From: Sulfitobacter brevis
Lineage (GTDB): Bacteria > Pseudomonadota > Alphaproteobacteria > Rhodobacterales > Rhodobacteraceae
Direction of reading: 5' to 3'
DNA length: 64,000 nt
Assembly: GCF_900112755.1 (NCBI RefSeq)
Contig: NZ_FOMW01000004.1
Span: 124,001 to 188,000, forward strand
Shown: positions 39,952-46,420 of the stretch, piece by piece
Numbering within the stretch: position 1 is the stretch's first letter
How the letters are laid out: each line of letters begins with the position of its first letter
Program-made: the position numbers and the translations under genes
Notes under the pieces: model-generated
Database searches by the model: none
Seen by the model: the letters and a program-made list of their open reading frames with translations, nothing else
Told to the model about the DNA's origin: nothing

Positions 39952-40869
39952 ATGCAAATCTACCTGCCCATTGCTGAGATTTCAGTGAATGCCTACCTCA
40001 TTCTGGGGTTAGGTGGGCTTGTCGGCATTCTGTCCGGTATGTTTGGTGTGGGTGGGGGTTTTCTGATCACCCCGTTGTTGTTCTTTGTCGGTATTCCTCC
40101 TGCGGTCGCCGTGGCCACCTCCACCAACCAGATTGTTGCATCGTCATTCTCCGCTCTGCTGGCGCATTTGAAACGGCGCACTGTCGATTTTCGCATGGGT
40201 TGGGTGCTGCTCATCGGTGGCTTGATCGGCTCCGGCCTCGGGGTGATCGTCTTCAACATGCTGCGCGCACTTGGCCAAGTCGATCTGCTGGTGAAGCTTT
40301 GCTACGTTATCTTTCTGGGTGTGATTGGCGGCTTGATGTTTATCGAGTCGCTGAACGCAATCCGCCGAACCCGCAAGGGCGGGCGCGCGACACTGCGCAA
40401 GAAGCACAACTGGATTCACGGATTGCCATTCAAGGTACGGTTTCGGGTTTCCGGGCTTTATATCTCTGTGATCCCGCCGCTGATGGTGGGGGTTCTCGTT
40501 GGTATTCTGGCGGCAATCATGGGCGTTGGCGGCGGGTTCATCATGGTCCCCGCAATGATCTATCTGCTTGGCATGCCCACGAAAGTAGTGGTGGGCACCT
40601 CGCTGTTTCAGATCATATTCGTCACAGCCTTCACCACGATGTTGCACGCGACGACGAACTACACGGTCGATATCGTGCTCGCGGTCTTGCTTCTGGTTGG
40701 CGGTGTGATCGGTGCGCAGGTGGGCACGCAAATCGGTATGCGGATGAAGGCCGAGCAGTTGCGAATTCTGCTCGCGTTTCTCGTGCTTTTGGTCTGCGGC
40801 AACCTCGCGCTTGACCTGCTGCTCCAGCCCGATGAGCTTTTCTCCCTCAGCCCTGTGGTGATAAAATGA
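39952..40869 (+). CDS. TauE/SafE-family sulfite/sulfonate exporter-like permease
   Basis: 305 aa, about eight helices in two repeats. Each half carries the glycine-rich core, SGMFGVGGGFLITPLLFFVG near residue 27 and AAIMGVGGGFIMVPAMIYLL near 188, as in TauE/SafE (UPF0721). Members export sulfite or sulfoacetate-type anions. Its start codon region follows AACAGGAG. It overlaps the TIGR02186 gene by 4 nt, a pairing common in Rhodobacteraceae. Confidence 0.88.
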   Translation: MQIYLPIAEISVNAYLILGLGGLVGILSGMFGVGGGFLITPLLFFVGIPPAVAVATSTNQIVASSFSALLAHLKRRTVDFRMGWVLLIGGLIGSGLGVIVFNMLRALGQVDLLVKLCYVIFLGVIGGLMFIESLNAIRRTRKGGRATLRKKHNWIHGLPFKVRFRVSGLYISVIPPLMVGVLVGILAAIMGVGGGFIMVPAMIYLLGMPTKVVVGTSLFQIIFVTAFTTMLHATTNYTVDIVLAVLLLVGGVIGAQVGTQIGMRMKAEQLRILLAFLVLLVCGNLALDLLLQPDELFSLSPVVIK

Positions 40870-41633
40870 GGCGGCTGGTCGTTGGCCTGCTGCTTGCTGT
40901 CGGCCTTGCTGTTTCTGCCAATGCGGAAGAAGAAATTGTATTGGGGCTCAGCCAAGCCGAAGTGTCGATCAGCACCAATTTCAACGGGTCCGAGATCCTG
41001 ATCTACGGTGCGGTTAAACGCGAAACGCCGGTGCCCCAAGGCGCCCCGCTCGAAGTGGTCATGACAGTCTCTGGCCCCTCGCTGCCCATCAACGTCTGGC
41101 GCAAGCACAAGCGTTTTGGCATCTGGATCAACACCGAGGCCGTTGAGGTCGATCGCGCCCCAAGCTTTTATGCGGTGGTGACCAGCGGCCCGCTCGATCA
41201 TGTGCTGAAACGGATCGAAGACCTACGCCACAAAATCTCGATCCCGCGCGCTATCAGATCGGTCGGCGCGCCAATGACGATCAAGGACTCCACAGCGTTC
41301 ACCGAGGCACTGATCCGCATCCGAAGCCGCGCCAACCTGTATCAGGTGATCGAGGATGGCGTGAAAGTTGACCAGCAAACTCTATTTCGCGCCGCAATTG
41401 CCCTGCCCGCAGCCCTGACCGAAGGCGATTACATCACCCGGATCTTCCTGACCCGCGGCGGCACCGTCGTGTCGCAATACCAGACTGTGATCGACGTGCG
41501 CAAAGTTGGGATGGAACGCTGGCTATTCAACCTGTCGCGGGAAAATGCGTTTCTTTACGGTCTTTTGTCATTGGTCATCGCGATCGCGGCGGGATGGGGC
41601 GCCTCAGCCGCGTTCGCACTGCTGCGACGCTAA
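40866..41633 (+). CDS. TIGR02186 family membrane-anchored protein
   Basis: 255 aa. Signal peptide (ends near ANAEEE), a long periplasmic region and one C-terminal membrane helix (about residues 226-252). The pattern IVLGLSQAEVSISTNFNGSE near residue 20 and PLEVVMTVSGPSLPINVWRK identify TIGR02186. It is tied to the TauE-like exporter by a 4-nt overlap, so it is probably an accessory subunit. Function unproven. Confidence 0.85.
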   Translation: MRRLVVGLLLAVGLAVSANAEEEIVLGLSQAEVSISTNFNGSEILIYGAVKRETPVPQGAPLEVVMTVSGPSLPINVWRKHKRFGIWINTEAVEVDRAPSFYAVVTSGPLDHVLKRIEDLRHKISIPRAIRSVGAPMTIKDSTAFTEALIRIRSRANLYQVIEDGVKVDQQTLFRAAIALPAALTEGDYITRIFLTRGGTVVSQYQTVIDVRKVGMERWLFNLSRENAFLYGLLSLVIAIAAGWGASAAFALLRR

Positions 41634-41688: not shown

Positions 41689-43227
41689 CTAGTCTAGCGC
41701 ATCGACAGGCGCATCCAGCTTCAGCAGCGCGGCGGGTGCCGCCCTAAGGTCATCAATTTCCAACGGTCCGGACGGCTTTGAAAGACGATTGCGCACAACC
41801 CAAATTAGCCGCTCCTGCGCGCGCGTGATCGCCACATAGGCAAGCCGCTTCCACAGCGGCTGTCCTGCCTCACTGCGTCCCATCCGCGCTGCGATAGCGA
41901 GATCGGGCGCAAAGACCTGAACAGTTTCCCACTGACTGCCTTGCGCCTTGTGGATGGTCACAGCAGCCCCGTGCAGAAAGGTAGCCCCCATGCGCGCGGC
42001 GAAGGGGATAAACGGCTCTTCTTCGTCTGGCTTTTCAATCTTTACGATGCTCGCCGCGCTGATCTGCGGATCTTCGGCTCCCATCACATGCAGGCGACTA
42101 AACCCGGGCTTGCGCCCTTCGCCCAGATAGATGACCTGCGCACCTTTGATCAGGCCTCGCGCCTCCAGATCAAGCCGCTTTTTACGATGTTTAAGCGGCA
42201 GCTCCAGCCCGTCACATATCAAGGGCTCGCCCTGCAAAAGCGCATCTTCCGGGGCGCCGTGCACCGCGCGAAATGCATTGATCAGCCGGATCCGCGTCGC
42301 GTTGCGCCACACCAAAACTGGCGAGCGTGCCATCAGATCAACCTCGACCCTTTGGCCCCATACCACGCGATCATCCCGTGCTGCGGCCTGCTCGATCATC
42401 CGCTCGAAGGCCTCGAAAGTCAGCTCGGGATCGGCAAGCGTGTGGGCAAGATCCAGGATCGGGTTGCCAGCATCCTGACGGTGAATACGGCTCAGCGTCA
42501 AAACCCGCTTTTCGGGCAGCTTTTCGAATACCATCGTTCCTGATTGCTTCACGGGCGCCAACTGGGCCGGATCGCCAAACAGCAAAAGCGTTGGAAAGAT
42601 TTCCTTCAGATCTTCGAACTGCTTGTCATCCAACATGGAGGATTCATCGACAAACCCGATATCCAATGGCTCTTCGCGACGCTTCCACCCCGTGATGAAA
42701 TCGCTGCCCCGCAAGCCCGCCGCCGCAAGGGCACCGGGAATGGATTTATTATTCGCATAGAACGCGGCCGCGCGATCCAGAGCGATTTCGGTCATCCCCT
42801 CGACGACAGGCCGTTCACCCGATCCCGCCAGCCACTCGGCCATACGTTCGTATTCCGGATCATAAACCGGCGTGTACAATATACGGTGGATCGTCGTGGC
42901 CGGCACCCCGCGCAGCCGCAACACACTCGCAGCCTTATTGGTCGGCGCGAGAATGGCCAAGGTGCGCTTGTCTTTGCGCTTGCGGCTTTCATAATCGCCC
43001 GAGACGATCTCGACACCGACCGCTTGCATCGCTTTATAAAGCTCGGCCAACAACAGCGTTTTGCCAGATCCGGCTTTGCCTGTGACAGCCATGACCTGAT
43101 TTGCGCCACCGGCTGGCGGCATCAATAGACTGTCCTCCAAATCGACGCCCGCATGGCGCAGCATTGCCGCCACATCATCAAATGCGGCGGCTTGGTCTTG
43201 CGAATATGTAACAGTTGGCAAACTCAT
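41689..43227 (-). CDS. RecD-like ATP-dependent DNA helicase
   Basis: 512 aa, superfamily 1. Walker A in AVTGKAGSGKTLLLAELYK near residue 48, Walker B IGFVDESSMLDDKQ near 191, motif III LLLFGDPAQLAPVKQSG, and the C-terminal motifs VTIHKAQGSQWETV and AYVAITRAQERLIWVV. Shorter than RecD2 and Dda-like in layout. It is a stand-alone gene, so not part of RecBCD. Role in replication or repair inferred from the family. Confidence 0.87.
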   Translation of the reverse strand: MSLPTVTYSQDQAAAFDDVAAMLRHAGVDLEDSLLMPPAGGANQVMAVTGKAGSGKTLLLAELYKAMQAVGVEIVSGDYESRKRKDKRTLAILAPTNKAASVLRLRGVPATTIHRILYTPVYDPEYERMAEWLAGSGERPVVEGMTEIALDRAAAFYANNKSIPGALAAAGLRGSDFITGWKRREEPLDIGFVDESSMLDDKQFEDLKEIFPTLLLFGDPAQLAPVKQSGTMVFEKLPEKRVLTLSRIHRQDAGNPILDLAHTLADPELTFEAFERMIEQAAARDDRVVWGQRVEVDLMARSPVLVWRNATRIRLINAFRAVHGAPEDALLQGEPLICDGLELPLKHRKKRLDLEARGLIKGAQVIYLGEGRKPGFSRLHVMGAEDPQISAASIVKIEKPDEEEPFIPFAARMGATFLHGAAVTIHKAQGSQWETVQVFAPDLAIAARMGRSEAGQPLWKRLAYVAITRAQERLIWVVRNRLSKPSGPLEIDDLRAAPAALLKLDAPVDALD

Positions 43228-43269: not shown

Positions 43270-43860
43270 TCAACCGGTTTTTGACCATTGCCGCGGTGCT
43301 GAGCATCCGAACGCCTGATCAAACCAGAACCGCGACTGTGGCAACGAGACCCCTGCCCGCGCAGCGATTTTCTGCTGCATCGTCTCTTCAAACTGCCACA
43401 ACCCAACGCTGATCCGCGCGGGGCCGTCCCCTTTGCTGCCCAGAACCTCTGGTGATGCCCCGATCATCCGGTAGATACGGACCATGCGGGCATCAAAAAC
43501 TCCGACGAAATGTTCAATGGCGAAACCTTGCATGATCTCGGCACCGCCTAACATCAACGCAGCCGCGACCGAGCCACCTGCATTTCGAGACAGGCAGAAT
43601 CTTGTGCACTCCCAGATCAGCGGGCTGCGCACTGGGCCCGTGAGTAAATCGGCAAAATGGTCATTAACCATCACCGGCCCCGTCGTCGGCAAGAATCTCA
43701 TGGAGCCGCCATGGGAGCCATCCGGCTGTTCCCAAATCACATAGAGCGGGTCAAGCGCATCATAGCGGTCTCGCTCCTCGCCCCGCGCATCGACCTCGAC
43801 CTCCCACCCCAGCCTTGTCTTGAACTGGTCGGCGCGATCACGAAACATGCCGCGCGCCAA
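43270..43860 (-). CDS. LuxI-family acyl-homoserine lactone synthase (5' end disrupted)
   Basis: The open frame (196 aa from TTG 43860) holds all conserved LuxI residues: MFRDRADQFKTRLGWEVEVD (Arg, Phe, Trp), YDALDPLYVI (both Asp), GSMRFLPTTGP, and SPLIWECTRFCLSR (Glu, Arg). The homologous reading continues upstream as YLYGSELCSFPKLAR and then meets TGA at 43897-43899, the third codon after an ATG at 43905 that has GAGG seven nt before it. The family usually reads M-hydrophobic-Arg-Tyr there, so CGA to TGA is likely. TTG 43860 lacks a clear ribosome site. The full frame would be 211 aa. May be a pseudogene. Confidence 0.8.
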   Translation of the reverse strand: MARGMFRDRADQFKTRLGWEVEVDARGEERDRYDALDPLYVIWEQPDGSHGGSMRFLPTTGPVMVNDHFADLLTGPVRSPLIWECTRFCLSRNAGGSVAAALMLGGAEIMQGFAIEHFVGVFDARMVRIYRMIGASPEVLGSKGDGPARISVGLWQFEETMQQKIAARAGVSLPQSRFWFDQAFGCSAPRQWSKTG

Positions 43861-44045
43861 CTTTGGAAAGGAGCATAGTTCGGAGCCGTAAAGATATCAT
43901 AACATTGTGTGCCCTCATGCCAATATGGAAGGCTGACAGAGCTACATCATTGCGACTTAATGCTTCCGGACCACAACGCACGCTCCACCCCCAATCAGGC
44001 AACACCAGAGCGGTGCAGCTTTTTTAACGGTGACGAGCCCCCCGG

Positions 44046-44764
44046 TTACACGACGATCATCCCACGGCTCAGCGCCCGCGCAACGGCATGAGTGGTATTC
44101 AACGCGCCCAGTTTGTACCGCGCACTTTCGATATAGACCCGCAAAGTATGTTCGGAGATTGAAAGCGTATCTGCGACCTGTGCACGGCTGTAACCAACAG
44201 CAATCAACGTCATGGCGTCTATCTCTCGCGGGCTCAGTGCACGCGATTGGCCCGGGGCGCGATCCGGTTCCAGTGCCAGCGCCTTTTCATTGAAATAATG
44301 GGCAACAAGGATCAGCGTCCGCCGGTGGGTTTCGGTAAACTCGGCCCAAGTGGCATCGTCGCAGGAGTGATTAACCGAGAATAGCGCGAATTGCCCATTG
44401 GGCCCCGCACTGGTACGGAATACCCTTGATTGCCCAATCCATATTTTTCGCTTTCCTGACGAAATTCCCGAGCGCCTTTGCCTGACCAATCCAGGCGTTT
44501 CCACTCGACCGGATGGAAGCGCTGGTAGCACCCGATAACCACCGGATCGACCCGTAAGTAATTCTGCTCCACATAGCGCTGCTGCCATTCCTGCGAATAC
44601 GTGCCACAACCGAACTGCTCGCCGGCCGAGTCCACCCAGTGATAGGCAATGTGGGCGATAGCAAAACAATCCCGCAGCGCGACACTCGCGGTCTGCATTG
44701 CGTCAAGCGTATCGGCCCGCTCAAGCGACTCCAGAATTAATTCCTTTTTCGGCTGTATACCCAT
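44046..44764 (-). pseudogene. LuxR-family quorum-sensing regulator, frameshifted
   Basis: The autoinducer-binding half lies in one frame (44764 to about 44405): SQEWQQRYVEQNYLRVDPVV and HPVEWKRLDWSG carry the Trp, Tyr, Asp-Pro and Trp residues of the ligand pocket, then GNQGYSVPVRG. The reading continues in another frame as PNGQFALFSVNHSC and the HTH domain ALSPREIDAMTLIAVGYSRA ... ISEHTLRVYIESAR to the stop at 44046. The switch is at a run of four C on the plus strand (44403-44406). One more base would give VRGPNGQF and 239 aa, the normal LuxR length. As it stands the product ends at 150 aa without a DNA-binding domain. Confidence 0.85.
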
Positions 44765-44918
44765 ACGTATCGCCCGCTTTCCTTTTCTCTGCGGCAGCGA
44801 TCTCGGTCAGGGCAATTATTGCGGTATCGTCCAATTGCTCAGCGAGCTTGGGAAGATCATTTGATACCGCGAAAACCCTCAGATCGGCCAGAACATCCAT
44901 AATCCAGTCATTTCGCAT
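44721..44918 (-). CDS. Small protein upstream of and overlapping luxR
   Basis: 65 aa from ATG 44918 with GGGGAG 8 nt upstream. It begins MRNDWIMDVLADLRVFAVSN, then KLAEQLDDTAIIALTEIAAAE, predicted helical and acidic. Its 3' end overlaps the luxR start by 44 nt, so coupling is likely. I recall similar short ORFs beside luxR in this family, without known function. Confidence 0.7.
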   Translation of the reverse strand: MRNDWIMDVLADLRVFAVSNDLPKLAEQLDDTAIIALTEIAAAEKRKAGDTYGYTAEKGINSGVA

Positions 44919-45139: not shown

Positions 45140-46420
45140 TTACCGCCGTGCATCCAGTGCATCTTCGAGTGTTCTCAGGCCCGTGGTCGGGGCCTGCACC
45201 AGCACTGACATATTGCCCGGCTTGTGTTCGTTGCGGCGCATTTTCACGTGTGCCTGAGGCAGATCAGCCCAAGTAAAGACCTCGGACATGCAGGGGTCCA
45301 AACGCCGCTCCAGCATCAATTTATTTGCCGCTGATGCTTGTTTGAGGTGGGCAAAATGCGAGCCCTGCAAACGTTTCTGGTGCATCCACATATACCGTAC
45401 GTCAAAGGTTAAGTTAAAGCCGCTGGTACCGGCACAGATCACCACCATGCCGCCCTTTTTCACGACGAAAGTAGACACAGGGAATGTCGCCTCGCCGGGG
45501 TGCTCGAACACCATGTCGACGTTGACACCCTTGCCGGTGATATCCCAGATCGCTTTGCCGAACTTACGGGTCTCGTCGAACCACGTTTTGTATTCCGGCG
45601 TGTTCACTGTGGGGAGTTGCCCCCAGCAATTGAAATCCTTGCGGTTGAGCACACCCTTCGCGCCCAGATCGAGCACAAACTGGCGCTTGCTTTCGTCACT
45701 GATAACCCCGATGGCATTCGCGCCTGCGGTGTTGATCAACTGGATCGCATAGGACCCCAGACCACCCGACGCGCCCCAAACCAGCACGTTCTGTCCGGGC
45801 TTGAGGTCATGCGGCTCATGGCCAAACAGCATGCGATATGCGGTGGCGAGCGTCAGCGTATAGCACGCACTTTCTTCCCACGTCAGGTGCTTGGGGCGTG
45901 GCATCAACTGCTGGCTCTGCACGCGAGTGAACTGGCTGAAGGACCCATCGGGCGTCTCGTAGCCCCAGATTCGTTGGCTCGACGAATACATCGGATCGCC
46001 GCCGTTACATTCCTCGTCGTCGCCATCGTCCTGATTGCAGTGAATCACCACCTCGTCGCCGACCTTCCAGCGCTTCACCTTGTCACCTACCGCCCAAACG
46101 ATGCCCGAGGCATCCGAGCCCGCGATGTGATAAGGCTGCTTGTGGCCGTCGAACGGGCTGATCGGCTGACCGAGCGAAGCCCAGACGCCGTTATAGTTAA
46201 CGCCTGCAGCCATCACGAGGACAAGCACGTCCTGGCTATCGAGTTGCGGGACGTCGACGACTTCTTCGAGCATTGCTTTATCCGGCTCGCCGTGGCGTTC
46301 GCGGCGGATCGCCCATGCGTACATCTGTTTTGGCACATGGCCCATCGGGGGCATCTCGCCCACTTCGTAAAGGTCTTTTTCCGGCGCATCATACTGCGCA
46401 ATGGTGGTATCAAGTGCCAT
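45140..46420 (-). CDS. ccr: Crotonyl-CoA carboxylase/reductase
   Basis: 426 aa, the usual length. Medium-chain dehydrogenase/reductase fold. N-terminal substrate domain with YNGVWASLGQPISPFDGHK near 91, Rossmann motif VLVWGASGGLGSYAIQLI near 216, and EVFTWADLPQAHVKMRRNEHKPGNM at the end. Catalyses NADPH-dependent reductive carboxylation of crotonyl-CoA to ethylmalonyl-CoA, the defining step of the ethylmalonyl-CoA pathway for acetyl-CoA assimilation. AGGAGG precedes the ATG. ecm is about 2.6 kb away on the other strand, and mcl2-type and mch genes lie downstream in the window. Confidence 0.95.
   Translation of the reverse strand: MALDTTIAQYDAPEKDLYEVGEMPPMGHVPKQMYAWAIRRERHGEPDKAMLEEVVDVPQLDSQDVLVLVMAAGVNYNGVWASLGQPISPFDGHKQPYHIAGSDASGIVWAVGDKVKRWKVGDEVVIHCNQDDGDDEECNGGDPMYSSSQRIWGYETPDGSFSQFTRVQSQQLMPRPKHLTWEESACYTLTLATAYRMLFGHEPHDLKPGQNVLVWGASGGLGSYAIQLINTAGANAIGVISDESKRQFVLDLGAKGVLNRKDFNCWGQLPTVNTPEYKTWFDETRKFGKAIWDITGKGVNVDMVFEHPGEATFPVSTFVVKKGGMVVICAGTSGFNLTFDVRYMWMHQKRLQGSHFAHLKQASAANKLMLERRLDPCMSEVFTWADLPQAHVKMRRNEHKPGNMSVLVQAPTTGLRTLEDALDARR

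What the first reader, a model, noticed from the sequence alone, without database searches (positions are those of the whole stretch)
43270..43905. luxI with an in-frame TGA at codon 3 after a well-placed ATG
Seen: upstream of the open frame the LuxI-like reading continues (YLYGSELCSFPKLAR) to a TGA, preceded by ATG TTA and a GAGG ribosome site. LuxI proteins typically read M-hydrophobic-Arg-Tyr, so CGA to TGA fits a single transition. The catalytic residues downstream are intact. Alternatives are a TTG start at 43860 giving a shortened protein, or a small indel after the ATG at 43900.
Basis: partly seen in the sequence, partly recalled or inferred. Interest (0 to 1): 0.75.

Follow-up and report, generated by a model that had tools for sequence, protein, structure and literature searches.

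The report
Quorum-sensing gene pair, both genes broken
A marine bacterium carries a signal-making gene (luxI) cut short by a stop at its third codon, beside a signal-sensing gene (luxR) that is broken too, so this cell-to-cell signalling pair looks switched off, probably by ordinary gene decay.

Summary
On the minus strand luxI reads ATG (43905-43903), TTA, TGA (43899-43897), then an open LuxI frame to TGA at 43272-43270. Among 106 distinct related luxI genes codon 3 is Arg in 104, His in 1, Lys in 1, never a stop. The neighbouring luxR is also broken: its halves lie in different frames, meeting at GGGGCCC (44406-44400), whereas 106 of 106 related loci with both halves keep one frame. No other gene compared between 33 and 53 kb is split. 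The order ccr-luxR-luxI-helicase is the known Roseobacter topology B. Best reading: a recent double pseudogene. In 57 genus genomes the locus erodes repeatedly: luxI gone with luxR kept in 13, both gone in 8. Absence of this luxI goes with a second, orphan synthase (Fisher p 3e-6; tree-corrected p 0.005), which this genome has intact; the fitted rates do not show that the orphan causes the loss. Readthrough, selenocysteine and internal starts have little support. No reads were available, so sequencing error is not excluded.

The parts
43270..43905 (-). luxI (AHL synthase, I-beta type), interrupted by a stop at codon 3
   Evidence: (PF00765 E 4.5e-21)
43897..43899 (-). in-frame TGA where 104 of 106 distinct relatives have Arg
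43913..43916 (-). GAGG ribosome site, 7 bases before the luxI ATG
44046..44764 (-). luxR (AHL receptor, R-beta type), split into two frames: N half 44764-44399 (autoinducer-binding domain), C half 44398-44046 (DNA-binding half)
   Evidence: (PF03472 E 2e-26 for the N half)
44400..44406 (-). GGGGCCC run at which the luxR frame changes
44721..44918 (-). small ORF (65 aa) between ccr and luxR, found beside luxR in the fetched genus loci
45140..46420 (-). crotonyl-CoA carboxylase/reductase gene (ccr), intact flank
   Evidence: TIGR01751, 616 bits, cut-off 379
41689..43227 (-). superfamily 1 type helicase gene, intact flank
   Evidence: PF13604 and PF13538 above cut-off

Best explanation
A recently inactivated luxR-luxI quorum-sensing pair of Roseobacter topology B in a Sulfitobacter-like genome. 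Ribosomes that start at the luxI ATG stop after two residues, so no AHL synthase is made. The luxR frame changes in the middle, so the receptor loses its DNA-binding half (lesions shown from sequence; absence of product inferred). The pair is decaying as it has repeatedly in this genus, perhaps tolerated because the genome also carries a second, intact orphan synthase gene beside a sensor kinase (co-occurrence shown; cause inferred).
For: TGA at a codon that is never a stop in 106 distinct relatives. luxR split in all five comparisons with genus-mates while no other gene compared over 33-53 kb is split, and 0 of 106 related loci with both halves (96 with a distinct luxI) show such a split. Topology B order. 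Repeated loss at the same locus: of 57 genus genomes, luxI present 35, luxR alone 13, neither 8, one not assessable on its contig. Further point lesions: G056 luxI frameshift and G043 luxR TAA at codon 50. Second synthase gene open, 236 aa, PF00765 50.8 bits, next to a divergent histidine kinase. Association of I-beta absence with I-delta presence: Fisher p 3.3e-6, Pagel LR 15.0, p 0.0047, n=55. luxR N half has the second-longest terminal branch of 94.
Against: No reads and no second strain of the species, so neither lesion is confirmed independently. The luxI body looks well kept: 3 outlier residues, with 11 of 30 other sequences having more; its terminal branch ranks 14 of 94 and the luxR C half 15 of 94, against 31 of 94 for the helicase, so neither is extreme. 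That fits a young lesion but also an error or a gene still in use. The fitted rates go against the orphan synthase driving the loss: I-beta loss was estimated lower with I-delta (7.9) than without (14), and I-delta gain higher where I-beta is absent (27) than present (4).
Confidence: 0.83

Rival explanations
1. Sequencing or assembly error: one or both lesions are not in the living strain. The luxR change sits in a G/C run, a usual place for an indel error.
For: Draft assembly of 68 contigs; luxR lesion in GGGGCCC; luxI body well kept.
Against: Two lesions of different kind fall in the two genes of one functional pair, and none in the other genes compared over 33-53 kb. The same pair is lost or broken repeatedly in the genus. 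A substitution to TGA is not a run-length error.
Confidence: 0.1
2. luxI still makes an active enzyme from an internal start (TTG 43860 or ATG 43848) or by low-level TGA readthrough.
For: Downstream frame open and well kept; some leaky readthrough is always possible (established knowledge).
Against: No ribosome site at either internal start. The shortened proteins lose residues that are the same in 31 of 31 sequences. The receptor beside it is broken as well. No fold near the TGA beyond chance.
Confidence: 0.04
3. Recoding: selenocysteine at the luxI TGA, and -1 frameshifting at the luxR slip-like site G GGC CCA.
For: The genome has a tRNA-Sec with anticodon tca on the same contig. The luxR site has the XXXYYYZ shape in the right frame (sequence).
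Against: Relatives have Arg, His or Lys at the site, never Cys. No stable hairpin after the TGA (z 0.20) or after the slip site (z 0.41). GGGCCC occurs at the same codons in 16 of 99 relatives with luxR in one frame, so the run comes with the codons for R-G-P. None of the relatives examined shares either arrangement.
Confidence: 0.02

Closest known systems
Roseobacter topology B luxRI (I-beta/R-beta), Cude and Buchan 2013, PMC3824088 (section 5 and passages read)
   Same: Gene order crotonyl-CoA reductase, luxR, luxI, helicase; luxI 61-77% identical to the 80 relatives
   Different: Here both luxI and luxR are interrupted; the words truncat- and pseudogene do not occur in that paper's main text
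ssbIR-type luxIR pairs of Roseobacter isolates (PMC4337385, passages read)
   Same: Same flanks (crotonyl-CoA reductase, helicase)
   Different: Isolates there that grew densely made detectable AHLs; no broken copy is mentioned in the passages read
Other interrupted topology-B luxI genes found here: Roseovarius litorisediminis L051 (TAG at codon 159), G056 and G300 (frameshifts), G408 (TGA at codon 105)
   Same: LuxI frame interrupted, helicase match beside it
   Different: Different lesions; luxR halves are in one frame in all four
luxR without luxI at the same locus in the same genus (13 of 57 genomes)
   Same: No working luxI at the locus
   Different: luxR is kept in one frame there, whereas it is broken in the window

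Membership tests
LuxI AHL synthase (PF00765) | Match to the Autoind_synth profile above the curated cut-off | tested here: met
   75.7 bits against a cut-off of 24; LasI 1ro5 E 3.7e-15
LuxI AHL synthase (PF00765) | Conserved Arg/Phe/Trp, Asp, Arg, Glu, Arg positions (catalytic role recalled) | tested here: met
   R21, F25, W31, D43, D46, R67, E96, R99 are the same in the window and 30 chosen relatives
LuxI AHL synthase (PF00765) | Uninterrupted frame from its start codon (a working gene) | tested here: not met
   TGA at codon 3
LuxI AHL synthase (PF00765) | Makes an AHL | not testable with these tools
   Needs culture and a reporter or mass spectrometry
Roseobacter topology B luxRI | ccr before luxRI and helicase after it | tested here: met
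   Order; ccr TIGR01751; helicase domains; definition
Roseobacter topology B luxRI | B1 variant: short-chain dehydrogenase after the helicase | tested here: not met
   The next gene, 40866-41633 on the other strand, is Alph_Pro_TM (PF09608)
LuxR receptor (PF03472) | Binding domain and DNA-binding half in one frame | tested here: not met
   Frames differ in the window; in 47 of 47 genus-mates with both halves they agree
Selenoprotein | Cys at the TGA position in relatives | tested here: not met
   Arg 104, His 1, Lys 1 of 106
Selenoprotein | Stable hairpin just after the TGA | tested here: not met
   z -0.04 and 0.20
Programmed -1 frameshifting | Slippery heptamer plus downstream structure, conserved in relatives | tested here: inconclusive
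   Heptamer shape present; no structure in the one 61-base stretch folded (z 0.41); 0 of 106 relatives share the frame arrangement

The most novel reading that the evidence does not exclude
The genus is swapping its quorum signal: the orphan I-delta synthase with its sensor kinase and the ancestral I-beta/R-beta pair replace each other, the pair going either luxI first, with luxR kept as a solo, or both at once. The window catches the second route midway, with both genes still in place but broken. (Odds lowered from 0.4 to 0.33 on rechecking, because the fitted rates lean against I-delta coming first.)
Probability: 0.33. Interest if true: 0.55.

Novelty: new member of a known kind. Interest (0 to 1): 0.36.

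Why it matters
It corrects what could be annotated as a luxI-luxR quorum system into a probably dead pair, so a prediction that this strain makes the I-beta type signal is probably wrong. The wider pattern, one locus seen intact, point-mutated, reduced to luxR alone or removed within one genus, and nearly complementary to a second synthase, makes the question of how quorum systems are replaced testable in marine bacteria.

Tried and rejected
Considered and rejected: small indel after the ATG at 43900 (relatives align to the ATG at 43905 without a gap); internal starts; selenocysteine; programmed frameshifting in luxR. Whether the genome has many broken genes was not tested; only 33-53 kb of the window was compared, with ORFs of five genus-mates, rows of 100 aa or more. 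Two further rows flagged there as multi-frame were set aside by inspection: a 478 aa ORF of L125 antisense to conserved genes and a 118 aa ORF antisense to luxR itself. Of the three rows flagged '1 TGA' in the listed part (394 genomes, 222 with a match, list cut), two proved to be ordinary terminators (L141, L142) and one, L140, a real internal TGA.

Rates were not decisive for luxI. The Pagel fit supports dependence but its rates do not support I-delta driving the loss. It rests on one FastTree tree of helicase plus ccr, midpoint-rooted; both genes flank the locus, and the six-genome clade that lacks both lux genes has support of only 0.33. The I-delta set is defined by E <= 1e-30 and spans 47-70% identity, one match being partial (G005), so it may mix subtypes.

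Rows dropped: G061 (66% complete) was not fetched; G004 and G049 had no helicase match; G059 and G060 are not in the set; G006 and G017 (under 90% complete) were left out of the n=55 tests. G006's luxI lies on another contig than its helicase. Broken luxI copies (G000, G056) count as present in the main test; coded as absent they give Fisher p 5.1e-6 and Pagel LR 14.95, p 0.0048. Of 109 loci three lack a full pair of luxR halves (L034, L054, L080), and 99 of 109 have a distinct luxI protein, since the two collections overlap. One search used 30 loci that I picked from 80. The delta and beta lists were copied by hand.

Literature: searches (open-licence PMC only; some searches listed 20 of 62, 116, 377 and 114 papers) listed no title or abstract start on a broken topology-B luxI or on the beta/delta complementarity. 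I read section 5 and passages of PMC3824088 and passages of PMC4337385; all other papers were seen as listings only.

Full report
What was checked. The window lies in a 4.24 Mb draft genome of 68 contigs, 99.98% complete. Two genus-mates have contigs of exactly the same length as records titled Sulfitobacter (85386 bases, Sulfitobacter sp. EhC04, and 1967633 bases, S. aestuariivivens), so I take the genus as Sulfitobacter. On the minus strand luxI begins ATG TTA TGA TAT CTT TAC (43905 onward). The frame after the TGA stays open to TGA at 43272-43270. A GAGG site sits 7 bases before the ATG.

The TGA stands in for a conserved Arg. In 80 of 80 relatives from the species-level genome collection codons 2-4 read [L/I]-R-[Y/F] (79) or LHY (1). 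With genus loci added, 117 loci give 106 distinct genes: Arg 104, His 1, Lys 1, stop 0. No gap is needed, so a substitution is the simplest account; CGA (12 of 106) and AGA (6 of 106) are both one change away. The body of the protein is LuxI by Pfam (75.7 bits) and by similarity to LasI (E 3.7e-15). Compared with 30 relatives picked from the 80, it departs from the common residue at 3 highly conserved columns; 11 of the 30 depart at more.

The neighbour is broken too. The luxR N half (44764-44399; PF03472 E 2e-26) and C half (to 44046) lie in different frames, which meet at GGGGCCC, 44406-44400. Of 109 related loci 106 hold both halves and none has them in different frames (96 of these have a distinct luxI). 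In the fetched genus loci 48 of 57, the window included, hold both halves and only the window's frames differ; one other, G043, has a stop inside luxR. When ORFs of five genus-mates are laid on the window, LuxR is split in all five comparisons, and no other gene from 33 to 53 kb is. Two lesions of different kinds in the two genes of one pair, beside intact neighbours, point to loss of function rather than random error. Without reads this is not proof.

Alternatives. Internal starts have no ribosome site and drop residues that are the same in 31 of 31 sequences. The genome carries a tRNA-Sec (69.5 bits; anticodon tca), so selenocysteine was considered: relatives have Arg, not Cys, and the RNA after the TGA folds no better than shuffles (z 0.20). 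The luxR site has the shape of a slippery heptamer, but the stretch after it has no structure beyond chance (z 0.41), and GGGCCC occurs at the same codons in 16 of 99 relatives whose luxR is in one frame.

What kind of system. The order crotonyl-CoA reductase (TIGR01751), luxR, luxI, helicase is topology B of Cude and Buchan 2013 (PMC3824088, section 5 read), with I-beta and R-beta proteins. It is not their B1 variant: the gene beyond the helicase is Alph_Pro_TM on the other strand. The genome has a second synthase-like gene, 236 aa, PF00765 50.8 bits, beside a divergent histidine kinase, as described there for orphan I-delta genes; that it makes an AHL is inferred. It also has one further gene with a LuxR-type binding domain elsewhere (not studied).

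The locus across the genus. In 62 genomes searched, 37 including this one have the I-beta synthase at E <= 1e-30. I fetched the ccr-helicase stretch from 56 genus-mates and compared it with the window. Of 57, luxI is present in 35; luxR stands alone in 13 (ccr-to-helicase gap 1.13 to 1.33 kb); neither is found in 8 (gap 138 to 195 bases); one (G006) could not be judged on its contig. Of the 35 luxI genes two are interrupted before residue 196 or split, the window's and G056's. Outside the genus, L051 has TAG at codon 159, L143 a frameshift and L140 a TGA at codon 105 of luxI. So decay of this pair recurs.

Link with the orphan synthase. I-delta was found in 26 of 60 genus genomes. Among 55 genomes at least 90% complete, I-beta and I-delta occur together in 7, I-beta alone in 27, I-delta alone in 18 and neither in 3 (Fisher p 3.3e-6). 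On a tree of helicase plus ccr the dependence remains (Pagel LR 15.0, df 4, p 0.0047), and coding the two broken luxI as absent changes little (LR 14.95). Against a simple causal reading, the fitted loss of I-beta is not faster with I-delta (7.9 against 14), and the gain of I-delta is faster where I-beta is absent (27 against 4). The window genome groups (support 0.96) with a clade of eleven, of which six have neither lux gene and nine carry I-delta; the six do not form a well-supported clade (0.33). It looks like an intermediate in that lineage. The swap of signals is an inference.

Verdict. The fuller picture is a probably dead luxR-luxI pair in a genus where this module is repeatedly lost. 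As a single gene this is an ordinary kind of finding; the genus pattern raises the interest somewhat.

Noticed in passing
L140 (G408:C291:30000-36000), luxI on the minus strand, codon 105: An in-frame TGA replaces the Cys after ECTRF, a position that is the same in the 31 LuxI proteins aligned. It may be another pseudogene; a Cys-to-TGA change is also what a selenoprotein would show. Not tested for a hairpin.
   Followed up: partly
G000:C53:109096-109186 (outside the window, same contig): A tRNA-Sec gene (anticodon tca), so the organism may use selenocysteine somewhere.
   Followed up: partly
L051 (Roseovarius litorisediminis CECT 8287), luxI codon 159: TAG interrupts luxI of the same type; the luxR halves beside it are in one frame.
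   Followed up: partly
L149 (G043:C57:14444-23173), luxR: TAA at codon 50 of luxR while luxI is open: a synthase without its neighbouring receptor.
   Followed up: partly
L124:5705-7948 (G000:C36): Orphan synthase-like gene next to a divergent sensor histidine kinase; relatives of the synthase occur in 26 of 60 genus genomes.
   Followed up: partly
window 44721-44918, minus strand: A 65-aa ORF between ccr and luxR, matched in all 48 fetched genus loci that have luxR and in none of the 8 that lack luxR and luxI; function unknown.
   Followed up: no
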